A DNA stretch of 64,000 bases from positions 528,508 through 592,507 of the forward strand of contig JAQTUV010000002.1 in the NCBI GenBank assembly GCA_028707175.1, in the 5' to 3' direction. Under the pieces are notes generated by a model. That model was not told where the DNA came from, did not search any database, and saw only the letters and a program-made list of their open reading frames with translations. The stretch's first letter is position 1, and every line of letters begins with the position of its first letter. The position numbers and the translations under genes are program-made. This document shows positions 45,118 through 48,212 of the stretch, piece after piece. Source of the DNA: Sideroxydans sp. GTDB taxonomy: Bacteria > Pseudomonadota > Gammaproteobacteria > Burkholderiales > Gallionellaceae.

Positions 45118-45152
45118 ATTTCAGTCGCTTGACTTAATCAAGCGACTGAAAT
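45118..45152. repeat. 35-bp palindrome, copy 1 of 2
   Basis: ATTTCAGTCGCTTGA-CTTAA-TCAAGCGACTGAAAT, perfect 15-bp arms; identical to 48178..48212. Confidence 0.95.
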
Positions 45153-45622
45153 ATCTTGTGGATGCCTTGCGGGATGACGATGCCGAATTCGGCGAGTAAG
45201 CCGCGTATCTGGTTCGCCTGTGCCGTTCTGGCTTTCACGAATCCCTGTCTGGCCCGGTGCACGGACAAGATCGCTTGTTGCTCGATGTTCTTGATCGGCA
45301 CGAAGCGCATGTTGGGTCGACTGACCGCTTCGCAGATCGCCTCCGCATCGGCCATGTCGTTCTTGTTGGTCTTCACGTAGGGTTTGACGAACTGGGGAGC
45401 CATGAGTTTGACGGTGTGCCCGAACTCACCTAGTTTTCTGGCCCAGTAATGCGCGCTGCCGCACGCTTCCATGCCGATCAGACACGGCTCCAGATTGGCG
45501 AAGTAACTCGACATCTCTGCTCGCTTCAGTTGTTTACGTACGGCCACTTTGCCTCGCTCATCTATGCCGTGAATCTGAAAAACTATTTTTGCCAGATCAA
45601 TGCCAATTGTCGTAATCTTCAT
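45134..45622 (-). pseudogene. Truncated IS110 family (IS1111-like) transposase, N-terminal DEDD domain only
   Basis: MKITTIGIDLAKIVFQIHGID ... GMEACGSAHYWARKL ... NKNDMADAEAICEA; C-terminal Transposase_20 part absent, ORF runs into the palindrome (KIFQSLD). Confidence 0.9.
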
Positions 45623-45717
45623 TTTTGGATGCCCCTTTCTATGTCTAGTGGCCGTAATGCCACCACTACATTGGCACTTTGATGCCTCATTAGGAAGTGG
45701 GCGTCCATTCCATTACG

Positions 45718-45724
45718 TTGGGCC
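45718..45724 (+). other. attC half site (R' box GTTGGGC) at the start of the cassette array
   Basis: TTACGTTGGGC directly upstream of the first cassette ORF; no matching R'' seen on the IS side. Confidence 0.45.
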
Positions 45725-45728
45725 TCTC

Positions 45729-45983
45729 ATGCGTGAGCTTCTAGCTGCCCTATGGGCAAATCAAACCGTCGGTTCGGTCGCTCGCTTTTTAGCTTGGGTG
45801 TTTGTGCTGTGTGGGCTTTTCGCTTTGTCAGCTGGAGTCTATTTCACCGTTACCGAAGGCTTCCCCACAGAGATGTCACTTCAATTTTTTGGCGTCATGG
45901 CAAGCACACTCTACGTTCTCGCTATCTTCCTGTTCGTCGCAATTAAAGGCAAAGCTCCTTCCGGGTGGCTCCCATGGAAATGA
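45729..45983 (+). CDS. Cassette 1: small membrane protein
   Basis: ATG 45729 (MRELLAALWANQ...), two TM segments. Confidence 0.55.
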   Translation: MRELLAALWANQTVGSVARFLAWVFVLCGLFALSAGVYFTVTEGFPTEMSLQFFGVMASTLYVLAIFLFVAIKGKAPSGWLPWK

Positions 45984-46014
45984 AACACCTATCCATGCCA
46001 CTCAATGAATTGAG

Positions 46015-46074
46015 GCCCAACCCATCCATCGAGAGGGACCGCCTATCGGCATCCCCTCATGTCAAACGTTATGC
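46015..46074 (+). other. attC-like recombination site 1
   Basis: R'' GCCCAAC (46015-46021) ... R' GTTATGC (46068-46074) with preceding TCAAAC; internal imperfect complementarity. Confidence 0.75.
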
Positions 46075-46084
46075 CCTTTGAGTC

Positions 46085-46417
46085 ATGAGCGCACTGCCCC
46101 TGTTGCCGATGCACATCGCATCAAAGTCAATCTCGAATGAAGAGGTCGTCCTACCAATGGCAGAGGCTCTCGCAGCTATTGATCTGTTTGAGTCAAAAGA
46201 CGTGCTCATTTTGGGCTGGGAGGGCTGGGTGAAAGATAAGAATGGCCGCGTGGGGCATGGAAATGCACCTCAGGGAACAGTCAGTTTGGAAGACCTCTCG
46301 ATTTCGGAGGCAGCGAAACTCTGCCGTGAAACAATCCCACAAGAGGCTGCCCGCTGGTTCACTGAGAATCCAAAAAACACAGACGACCTGCATTTTTGTA
46401 TCACGGTGCGGGCATAA
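46085..46417 (+). CDS. Cassette 2: hypothetical protein
   Basis: 110 aa ORF between two attC-like sites. Confidence 0.6.
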   Translation: MSALPLLPMHIASKSISNEEVVLPMAEALAAIDLFESKDVLILGWEGWVKDKNGRVGHGNAPQGTVSLEDLSISEAAKLCRETIPQEAARWFTENPKNTDDLHFCITVRA

Positions 46418-46423
46418 CATGGC

Positions 46424-46492
46424 GCTCAACCTCGCTCACTTCGGTCGCTGCGCGATAAAGCCGCGCAGCGCCGGTTTGCTCTACGTTGGGGC
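46424..46492 (+). other. attC-like recombination site 2
   Basis: R'' GCTCAAC (46424-46430) ... hairpin CGCTGCGCG/CGCGCAGCG ... ACGTTGGGG. Confidence 0.7.
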
Positions 46493-46549
46493 GCAAGGTG
46501 ACGGGCTACGCGGGCATGCGAATACCAAAATATTTATACCCGGATGTTA

Positions 46550-46579
46550 TTGATCGCCACATTATTACCCGGGTATAAT
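46550..46579 (+). promoter_or_regulatory. Sigma70-like promoter with embedded palindrome
   Basis: TTGATC-18 bp-TATAAT; spacer contains TACCCGGGTA, with TACCCGG repeated 30 bp upstream. Confidence 0.5.
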
Positions 46580-46595
46580 TGCGCCACTCAATTTA

Positions 46596-47285
46596 TTGGA
46601 GATGATGCAAATGGATGCCTCTGAACAAACATCATGGATTGCCTTTTCAAAAGGCAAGTGCATTGCCTCTGGTGCACCGCGAGGGGTAGTTACTGAAGTC
46701 AAGCGATTCATGGACTCTCAAGCAAAGGATGCTGTGACTATTCTTGATGCTCGAACCAGTGAAACCGTTGAGGTCGATTTCCGCGGTTCCGTATCTACAG
46801 TCCTCAAACGTATCCCTTCTGCGCCAATCCAGAGCCCCGAAGGAAATATTGAGCCACTGCCCCCAGAACGAACCGTCGGCCGACCTAGGCTTGGTGTTAC
46901 GGCGCGCGAGGTCACACTTTTGCCGAGGCATTGGGAGTGGCTTGGTACTCAGCCAGGAGGGGCGTCCACAGTCCTACGCAAGTTGGTTGAGCAAGCACTG
47001 CGTTCGAGCAAGGAATCCGACCGATTGCGCCAAGCTCAAGAGGCTGCCTATCGCTTCATGAATGTAATGGCAGGGGATAGTCCCGGCTTTGAAGAGGCCA
47101 CGCGCGCGCTATTTGCCAACGACATTGAACGACTTCAGCAGCTTGTTTCAACGTGGCCTCGTGACGTAAGAAACCAAGCTCTATTCCTTGCTGGCAAAGC
47201 AATCGCTAAAGATGGCTGCCTTGAGCATGCGCCCCAACCAATCATTCCTCCGCACCTGTCGCGGCAAGCCGCACTAGGCCAGTGA
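46596..47285 (+). CDS. Cassette 3: DUF2239 family protein
   Basis: GRPRLGVTAREVTLLPRHWEWLGTQPGGASTVLRKLVEQA; stop codon lies inside attC 3; start may be an internal Met. Confidence 0.8.
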   Translation: MEMMQMDASEQTSWIAFSKGKCIASGAPRGVVTEVKRFMDSQAKDAVTILDARTSETVEVDFRGSVSTVLKRIPSAPIQSPEGNIEPLPPERTVGRPRLGVTAREVTLLPRHWEWLGTQPGGASTVLRKLVEQALRSSKESDRLRQAQEAAYRFMNVMAGDSPGFEEATRALFANDIERLQQLVSTWPRDVRNQALFLAGKAIAKDGCLEHAPQPIIPPHLSRQAALGQ

Positions 47286-47300
47286 ATTCAAACGTTAGGC
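47231..47300 (+). other. attC-like recombination site 3
   Basis: GCCCCAAC ... GCGGCAAGCCGC hairpin ... AAACGTTAGGC. Confidence 0.65.
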
Positions 47301-47345
47301 TTCTTGCCCACTGAATATCGACATTGCCAAAGAGAGAGTCACAAC

Positions 47346-47543
47346 ATGCCATACATAAACATCCAAATCACCAAAGGGGCCACAAGAGAGCAGAAGGCTC
47401 AATTGGTTAAGGACGTAACCGATTCACTTGTGCGCGTGCTGGGCAAAAAACCTGAGCACACGCATGTCGTTATTCAGGAAATTAATGAGGAAGACTGGGG
47501 ATTCTCTGGTCTGCTTACGGACGAATGGAAAAAGCTCAAGTAG
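47346..47543 (+). CDS. Cassette 4: 4-oxalocrotonate tautomerase family protein
   Basis: MPYINIQITKGATREQKAQLVKDVTDSLVRVLGKKPEHTHVVIQEI; Pro after initiator Met. Confidence 0.85.
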   Translation: MPYINIQITKGATREQKAQLVKDVTDSLVRVLGKKPEHTHVVIQEINEEDWGFSGLLTDEWKKLK

Positions 47544-47565
47544 CTGTCTTCCACCCACCTACAAA

Positions 47566-47634
47566 GCCTAACCTAATGTTCGAGTGGGACTGCCGCGAAG
47601 CAACACGCACCAGCTACTCAATTTAACATTGGGC
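47566..47634 (+). other. attC-like recombination site 4
   Basis: R'' GCCTAAC (47566-47572), GTTCGAGTGGGAC ... CTACTCAATTTAAC, ATTGGGC. Confidence 0.7.
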
Positions 47635-47688
47635 ATCTCAGTAGCGATGACACTTTACACATCAATATCTGCATAAAGGAGAACAGCA

Positions 47689-48048
47689 ATGATAACCAAG
47701 GAGTGGGCACAGCATTTTGCAATCGATTGGGTGGACTCTTGGAACACGCACGACCTTGATCGAGTTCTATCTCACTACACTGACGACTTCGAGATGAGTA
47801 GTCCGTTCATTGTCGCTTTTTCCGGCGAAGCTTCTGGAACATTGAAGGGGAAAGCTCAGGTTGGGGCGTATTGGCGTGCGGCTTTACAACGCATCCCTGA
47901 TTTGCACTTTGAGCTAATCCAAGTATTTGTTTGCGTGAATAGCATCACCATCTACTACAAGGCCGTTTTAGGTAAGCTAGCAACCGAAGTGTTCTTTTTC
48001 AATCCAGATGGAAAAGCATTTAAAGCTCTGGCCCATTATGACAATTAG
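47689..48048 (+). CDS. Cassette 5: SnoaL-like/NTF2-fold protein
   Basis: WVDSWNTHDLDRVLSHYTDDFEMSSPF ... AYWRAALQRIPDLHFEL. Confidence 0.8.
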   Translation: MITKEWAQHFAIDWVDSWNTHDLDRVLSHYTDDFEMSSPFIVAFSGEASGTLKGKAQVGAYWRAALQRIPDLHFELIQVFVCVNSITIYYKAVLGKLATEVFFFNPDGKAFKALAHYDN

Positions 48049-48078
48049 TGTCTGTGAGTTGGTGTCCGCCCCATCATT

Positions 48079-48150
48079 CCACCGTGTGCGGGAAAACTGC
48101 ATGCACGGTTTGATGAGGGAGGGCAGGCGAGAGCCTGTTCTCTACTCTAC
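48079..48150 (+). other. Group II intron remnant (domain V/VI-like)
   Basis: ACCGTGTGCGGGAAAACTGCATGCACGGTT stem-loop, TGATGAGGGAGGG, CAGGC-GAGA-GCCTG hairpin, TTCTCTACTCTAC end. Confidence 0.65.
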
Positions 48151-48177
48151 CTATTTTAATAAAAATCAACCTAATCC

Positions 48178-48212
48178 ATTTCAGTCGCTTGACTTAATCA
48201 AGCGACTGAAAT
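48178..48212. repeat. 35-bp palindrome, copy 2 of 2
   Basis: Identical to 45118..45152. Confidence 0.95.

What the first reader, a model, noticed from the sequence alone, without database searches (positions are those of the whole stretch)
45118..48212. Integrase-less integron cassette array (CALIN-like) between two identical palindromes
Seen: five consecutive plus-strand ORFs, each followed or preceded by a site with a RYYYAAC box and a GTTRRRY-like box about 60-70 bp apart: 46015-46074 (GCCCAAC...GTTATGC), 46424-46492 (GCTCAAC...ACGTTGGGG), 47231-47300 (CCCCAAC...GTTAGGC), 47566-47634 (GCCTAAC...ATTGGGC), plus a half site at 45718. Each has internal self-complementarity, and the ORFs occupy almost all the space between sites. 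Known: this is the layout of integron cassettes, and arrays lacking an integrase are called CALINs. No intI-like ORF appears in the ORF track. Inference: a stranded or degenerating cassette array in a chromosomal backbone.
Basis: partly seen in the sequence, partly recalled or inferred. Interest (0 to 1): 0.85.

Follow-up and report, generated by a model that had tools for sequence, protein, structure and literature searches.

The report
Stranded integron cassettes beside efflux genes
A relative of the iron-oxidising bacterium Sideroxydans carries a small, decaying row of mobile gene cassettes, without its integrase, lodged between two copies of the promoter-operator of an efflux-pump operon; stranded rows like this are a known kind, but this placement could put the cassettes under the efflux switch.

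Summary
A covariance model trained on attC sites from outside the window finds exactly four hits in 64 kb, at 46015-46074, 46412-46491, 47232-47300 and 47566-47634, all on the + strand. One site is 93% identical to an attC in an integrase-bearing plasmid integron; another is 97% identical over 66 bp to an attC elsewhere in this genome. CALIN is the right label for the locus, but the genome is not integrase-less: a complete integron lies on contig C8. In the genus, 30 of 34 genomes carry attC-like sites. Both ends of the array are truncated mobile elements: an IS1111/IS110 remnant abutting the first attC, and a group II intron 3' end. The "identical palindromes" are not integron parts. Each is the promoter-operator-like site of the adjacent tetR-hlyD-RND operon, conserved in 18 of 18 genus relatives checked. 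Close relatives have one copy and no array. Here it is duplicated, and the upstream copy (TTGACT-17-TATCTT) points into the five same-strand cassettes. Two hairpins, one core site and both end sites are damaged, and tetR is frameshifted. Best reading: a decaying CALIN, possibly transcribed from a duplicated efflux promoter; the promoter capture is unproven.

The parts
44168..45097 (+). LysR-family regulator gene, left chromosomal neighbour
   Evidence: Pfam LysR_substrate and HTH_1; 95-96% identical to Sideroxydans relatives with an empty site
45098..45158 (+). Copy 1 of the duplicated promoter-operator unit; palindrome 45118-45152; -35 TTGACT 45129-45134, 17-nt spacer, -10 TATCTT 45152-45157, pointing into the array
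   Evidence: Direct repeat D1; promoter scan; same -35/17/-10 layout in 18 of 18 relatives upstream of tetR
45159..45715 (-). Truncated IS1111/IS110-type element: N-terminal half of the transposase (45162-45622) plus one IS end (CCATTA at 45710-45715)
   Evidence: NF033542 178 bits; 71% DNA identity to an intact Cupriavidus IS from the IS end to 45162, then stops
45716..45723 (+). Remnant of attC1: C plus R' box GTTGGGC, directly abutting the IS end
   Evidence: Sequence; IS boundary from alignment
45718..46068 (+). Cassette 1: 84-aa membrane-type protein (ORF 45729-45983)
   Evidence: ORF; R'/R'' match; homologues of 84 aa in metagenomes, up to 92%
46015..46074 (+). attC2, hairpin weakened
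   Evidence: CM 29.3 bits; 56 of 60 identical to an attC in a Klebsiella plasmid integron with an integron integrase; fold z -0.75 against -3.57 for that homologue
46069..46485 (+). Cassette 2: 110-aa protein of unknown function (ORF 46085-46417)
   Evidence: ORF; 69 homologues, mostly on short metagenome contigs
46412..46491 (+). attC3, the best preserved site
   Evidence: CM 56.6 bits, E 4e-12; 97% over 66 bp to C17:181064-181129 and 83% to an attC of the C8 integron
46486..47294 (+). Cassette 3: DUF2239 protein (ORF ends 47285), with its own promoter-like palindrome at 46535-46579
   Evidence: PF09998 227 bits; palindrome also upstream of the DUF2239 paralogue on C10 and nowhere else in 34 genus genomes
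47232..47300 (+). attC4, hairpin decayed
   Evidence: CM 33.2 bits; fold z +0.53 against -4.64 for its homologue on C8
47295..47628 (+). Cassette 4: tautomerase (ORF 47346-47543)
   Evidence: PF01361; copy at C10:51206-51982, 97% together with cassette 5
47566..47634 (+). attC5, R' core changed to ATTGGGC
   Evidence: CM 24.8 bits; same state in the C10 copy
47629..48084 (+). Cassette 5: SnoaL-like protein (ORF 47689-48048) and the start of its attC (GCCCCATCATTCCACCG, 48068-48084), truncated
   Evidence: PF12680; the C10 copy continues past 48084 into attC stem sequence, the window does not
48077..48150 (+). Group II intron 3' end (domains 5 and 6), 5' part missing
   Evidence: RF00029 32.9 bits, E 6e-4, below the gathering score of 40; only match in the genome; fold z -4.3; closest matches lie just downstream of reverse-transcriptase genes
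48158..48218 (+). Copy 2 of the promoter-operator unit; palindrome 48178-48212; -35 TTGACT 48189-48194, -10 TAACTT 48212-48217, serving the native operon
   Evidence: Direct repeat D1; alignment with relatives
48247..48965 (+). tetR (CecR-like) gene, one base short relative to relatives, so the C-terminal domain is out of frame
   Evidence: Two overlapping ORFs with TetR_N and CecR_C; alignment with three relatives

Best explanation
This is a decaying CALIN: a five-cassette piece of integron array of the attC types used by this genome's own chromosomal integron, now cut off from any integrase. Shown: attC sites that match a model and known integron sites, five same-strand cassettes, an IS1111-type remnant abutting the first attC, a group II intron 3' end joined inside the last one, an empty site in the nearest relatives, and duplication of the conserved promoter-operator of the adjacent tetR-hlyD-RND operon on either side. 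Inferred: the roughly 62-bp operator unit was duplicated first (TCTTG stands at the end of LysR and again after the palindrome, so slippage would duplicate exactly this unit), mobile DNA then entered between the copies, and later deletions trimmed both ends. Copy 2 keeps driving the efflux operon. Copy 1 points into the array with no predicted terminator, so the cassettes may be transcribed from it in place of an integron Pc promoter. Cassette mobility is probably lost, because only attC3 looks intact. The confidence given is for the decaying-CALIN reading; the order of events and transcription from copy 1 are much less certain (about 0.35 and 0.3).
For: attC model, trained without window sequence, hits only these four places in 64 kb and none at E<=0.01 in two near-complete relatives, G004 and G047. 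attC2 is 93% identical to a plasmid integron attC beside an integrase. attC3 and the cassette 4-5 block have relatives elsewhere in the genome. Full intI on C8 at 493 bits. Cassettes carry matching R'/R'' boxes. IS remnant and intron remnant. Empty site in G024, G019, G001 and SW.3.112. Operator with TTGACT-17-TAnnnT in 18 of 18 relatives. Decayed folds against well-folding homologues.
Against: The order of events is not shown. The two operator copies match at only 18 of 27 upstream spacer positions, which a recent slippage duplication would not give; a related donor strain could equally explain it. Transcription from copy 1 is only predicted: about three promoter-like matches of this level are expected by chance in the region, although conservation in relatives argues that this one is real. 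The intron remnant points the same way as the cassettes, unlike typical IIC-attC introns. The contig could contain an assembly join at the 35-bp repeat; reads were not available.
Confidence: 0.8

Rival explanations
1. The array arrived by homologous integration of a circle or a transferred fragment from a related strain that already had the array next to the same operator; crossover in the identical 35-bp core left a hybrid operator on each side. This is a rival to the inferred order of events, not to the CALIN reading.
For: The operator core is identical between copies while the upstream spacer differs at 9 of 27 positions, as expected if the copies come from two strains with a conserved operator. 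Copy 1 keeps the LysR-side spacer and copy 2 the tetR-side flank.
Against: None of the held relatives carries the array at this site. A 35-bp identity is short for homologous recombination.
Confidence: 0.35
2. A still mobile cassette pool: the C8 integrase acts in trans on this array, and cassettes exchange between loci.
For: The genome has an intact integrase gene. Cassettes 4-5 occur in two places at 97%. attC3 looks intact.
Against: Sites 2 and 4 have weakened hairpins, site 5 has lost the G of the GTT core, and the first and last sites are truncated. Excision needs two working sites.
Confidence: 0.12
3. An ordinary operon of small genes whose spacers mimic attC sites by chance.
For: All ORFs are on one strand and closely spaced.
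Against: Model E-values and absence of hits elsewhere in the window, near-identical attC in an integrase-bearing integron, empty site in relatives.
Confidence: 0.02
4. The flanking operator duplication is an assembly artefact at a 35-bp repeat, and the array really lies elsewhere in the genome.
For: The repeat core is short and identical; the genome is in 19 contigs and reads were not seen.
Against: The flanks of the two copies differ and each copy has a distinct spacer; an array next to this operator would still need explaining wherever it lies.
Confidence: 0.07

Closest known systems
CALIN (cluster of attC sites lacking an integron integrase; IntegronFinder 2.0, PMC9024848)
   Same: At least two attC sites close together, cassette ORFs, no integrase nearby, few and partly degenerate sites
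   Different: Bounded on both sides by a duplicated efflux promoter-operator, with one copy facing into the cassettes
The chromosomal integron of this same genome (C8, about 325.5-331 kb)
   Same: Shares attC types with the window, most clearly at site 3
   Different: Has intI next to its array; the window locus has no intI
IS1111 elements that target attC sites (ISKpn4, ISPst6; PMC11187229)
   Same: IS110/IS1111 transposase and insertion right beside an attC R' box
   Different: Only about half an element remains, so its second subterminal repeat and its non-coding RNA region cannot be examined
Group II introns in integrons and CALINs (IIC-attC and others; PMC7923331)
   Same: 5'-truncated intron remnant inside a cassette array, as reported for other arrays
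   Different: Same orientation as the cassettes, whereas IIC-attC introns are normally opposite; class not determined here

Membership tests
CALIN | At least two attC sites in a cluster | tested here: met
   Four hits within 1.7 kb, with a home-made model; IntegronFinder itself could not be run
CALIN | No integron integrase near the cluster | tested here: met
   intI model over the cut-off only at C8:330086-331027; the window is on C9
Complete integron | intI adjacent to the attC array | tested here: not met
   No intI match over the cut-off on C9
attC site | R''/R' boxes and L''/L' arms in the attC layout | tested here: met
   All four sites match the model end to end; site 5 has ATT in place of the GTT core
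attC site | Bottom strand folds into a stable hairpin | tested here: inconclusive
   Better than shuffles at sites 3 and 5, not at 2 and 4; control sites z -2.2 to -4.9
attC site | Recombination by an integron integrase | not testable with these tools
   Needs a bench assay
IS1111 elements targeting attC | IS110/IS1111-type DEDD transposase | tested here: met
   NF033542 178 bits, over the cut-off of 140; N-terminal half only
IS1111 elements targeting attC | Insertion at the end of an attC site | tested here: met
   IS end at 45715, R' box at 45717-45723
IS1111 elements targeting attC | Subterminal inverted repeats at both ends | not testable with these tools
   The other end is deleted
Group II intron | Domain 5 and 6 structure | tested here: met
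   RF00029 E 6e-4 though below the gathering score; fold z -4.3; matches just downstream of reverse-transcriptase genes
Group IIC-attC intron | Orientation opposite to the cassettes | tested here: not met
   Intron 3' end is on the + strand, as are the cassettes
TetR-type promoter-operator | Dyad overlapping the promoter of the tetR operon, conserved in relatives | tested here: met
   18 of 18 relatives
TetR-type promoter-operator | Binding by the TetR protein | not testable with these tools
   Needs a gel shift or footprint; tetR is frameshifted here

The most novel reading that the evidence does not exclude
The stranded cassettes have exchanged the integron Pc promoter for a duplicated efflux promoter-operator, so that an integrase-less array became part of the efflux pump regulon (or is constitutively on, since tetR is frameshifted) and its genes are kept by selection.
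Probability: 0.2. Interest if true: 0.55.

Novelty: new member of a known kind. Interest (0 to 1): 0.35.

Why it matters
How cassettes survive after losing their integrase is an open question for the many CALINs known. This locus gives a concrete, testable route: a chromosomal promoter duplicated at the upstream edge of the array. It also shows one array trimmed by two kinds of mobile element in Gallionellaceae, a group for which a search of the held papers found no integron study.

Tried and rejected
The first attC model (R1) had only five base pairs after automatic folding and was dropped for R2 with a hand-set structure. A simple R''/R' pattern search with folding gave many false hits in coding sequence and missed the true start of site 3. 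The idea that the palindromes are integron, dif or transposon ends was rejected because they sit upstream of tetR throughout the genus. The idea that the LysR-tetR gap is a cassette hotspot was rejected: four relatives with larger gaps have ordinary genes there. Rfam has no match over its gathering scores in the window. Paper searches for integrons in Gallionellaceae or Sideroxydans found nothing relevant. The intron class could not be settled from domains 5-6 alone.

Full report
What is there. The window is part of contig C9 of a 2.9-Mb genome. Its nearest named relatives are Sideroxydans and Gallionella MAGs (Gallionellaceae), with LysR 93-96% identical. Between a LysR gene and a tetR-hlyD-RND operon lies a 3.06-kb insert bounded by two identical 35-bp palindromes.

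The attC sites are real. I built a covariance model from 16 attC sites, all from outside the window: class 1 integron cassettes, a Klebsiella plasmid integron, and other arrays of the same genome. On 64 kb, both strands, it gives exactly four hits at E<=10: 46015-46074, 46412-46491, 47232-47300 and 47566-47634. Two near-complete genomes of the same genus, G004 and G047, give none at E<=0.01. With that correction, each of the first four cassettes has an R' box that is the exact reverse complement of its own R'' box, as expected for cassettes that once were circles. Site 2 matches 56 of 60 bases of an attC in a Klebsiella plasmid integron with an integron integrase. Site 3 is 97% identical over 66 bp to a site on C17 and 83% to one in the C8 integron.

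The cassettes. They encode an 84-aa membrane-type protein, a 110-aa unknown protein, DUF2239, a tautomerase and a SnoaL-like protein. The first two have homologues mainly on short metagenome contigs. Cassettes 4 and 5 occur together again on C10 at 97% identity, with 10 synonymous and 3 non-synonymous differences between the copies, which suggests purifying selection but is a small sample.

Genome context. The genome has one integrase over the model's cut-off, at C8:330086-331027, beside its own attC array. Further attC clusters lie at C8:288.8-290.4 kb, C17:179.8-181.1 kb and C10:49.5-50.7 kb, with single sites elsewhere. In the genus, 15 of 34 genomes have an integrase over the cut-off and 30 of 34 have attC-like sites. 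So the locus is a CALIN in a genome, and a genus, in which integrons are common.

The ends of the array. On the left is an IS110/IS1111-type transposase fragment (NF033542, 178 bits). Its alignment to an intact Cupriavidus element runs from the IS end at 45715 to 45162 and then stops, within four bases of the operator copy. The IS end sits one base from the R' box of attC1. Some IS1111 elements, such as ISKpn4, target one end of attC sites (PMC11187229). On the right, cassette 5 runs into the beginning of its attC and then, at 48084, into a group II intron 3' end. The C10 copy continues at that point into normal attC stem sequence, so the junction is secondary. The intron call rests on RF00029 at 32.9 bits, below the gathering score, on a fold z of -4.3, and on matches lying just downstream of reverse-transcriptase genes. 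Group IIC-attC introns usually point against the cassettes (PMC7923331); this one points with them, so I do not file it there.

The palindromes. They are not part of the integron. In 18 of 18 genus loci examined, the same dyad stands just upstream of tetR, and inside and after it are TTGACT, 17 bases, TAnnnT. This is a promoter-operator layout; TetR binding is inferred, not shown. Four close relatives have LysR, one operator, tetR, and nothing else between. In the window there are two copies. Copy 1 keeps the LysR-side spacer and has TTGACT-17-TATCTT facing the array; copy 2 keeps the tetR-side flank with TAACTT. Upstream similarity between the copies is 18 of 27 bases ungapped; one of 127,624 other comparisons in the window reaches that. 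How the duplication arose is open. Slippage between the TCTTG at the end of LysR and the TCTTG after the palindrome would give the observed unit; homologous integration from a diverged strain would better explain the diverged spacer.

Function. All cassettes lie downstream of copy 1 on the same strand, and no terminator-like site is predicted from 44900 to 48400, so transcription from copy 1 through the IS remnant into the cassettes is possible. Cassette 3 has its own promoter-like palindrome, shared only with the DUF2239 paralogue on C10. The tetR gene is one base short relative to three relatives, which puts its C-terminal domain out of frame; if this is not a sequencing error, both operators may be derepressed. 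Mobility is probably lost: sites 2 and 4 no longer fold better than shuffles although their homologues do, site 5 has ATT instead of GTT, and the first and last sites are truncated.

Verdict. CALINs are well known: IntegronFinder 2.0 counted 2961 of them against 2760 complete integrons in RefSeq genomes (PMC9024848). The unusual part is the duplicated efflux promoter-operator around the array and its possible use as a replacement promoter, which remains to be tested.

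Noticed in passing
window 46535-46579; C10:47654-47697 (-): A promoter-like palindrome TATACCCGG...CCCGGGTATWAT stands upstream of both DUF2239 genes of this genome and nowhere else in 34 genus genomes; it looks like a cassette-carried regulatory site.
   Followed up: partly
window 48247-48965: tetR (CecR-like) is one base short relative to three relatives, so HTH and C-terminal domain are in different frames; real mutation or sequencing error not distinguished.
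   Followed up: partly
L073 (G000:C10:40000-58000): A second integrase-less cassette cluster on C10 with HAD-type, acetyltransferase-like, tautomerase and SnoaL-like genes and a DUF2239 paralogue; it shares cassettes 4-5 with the window at 97%.
   Followed up: partly
L051 5580-11030 (G000:C8): Complete chromosomal integron with intI and an array of strongly conserved attC sites.
   Followed up: partly
genus genomes G009, G003, G020, G013: Several genus members carry scattered attC-like sites but no integrase over the cut-off, which suggests repeated loss of the integrase in this genus, or incomplete assemblies.
   Followed up: no
L036, L037, L038, L039: In four relatives the LysR-tetR gap holds other genes (a sigma-factor-like gene, PIN/antitoxin-like genes), so the gap tolerates insertions generally.
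   Followed up: partly
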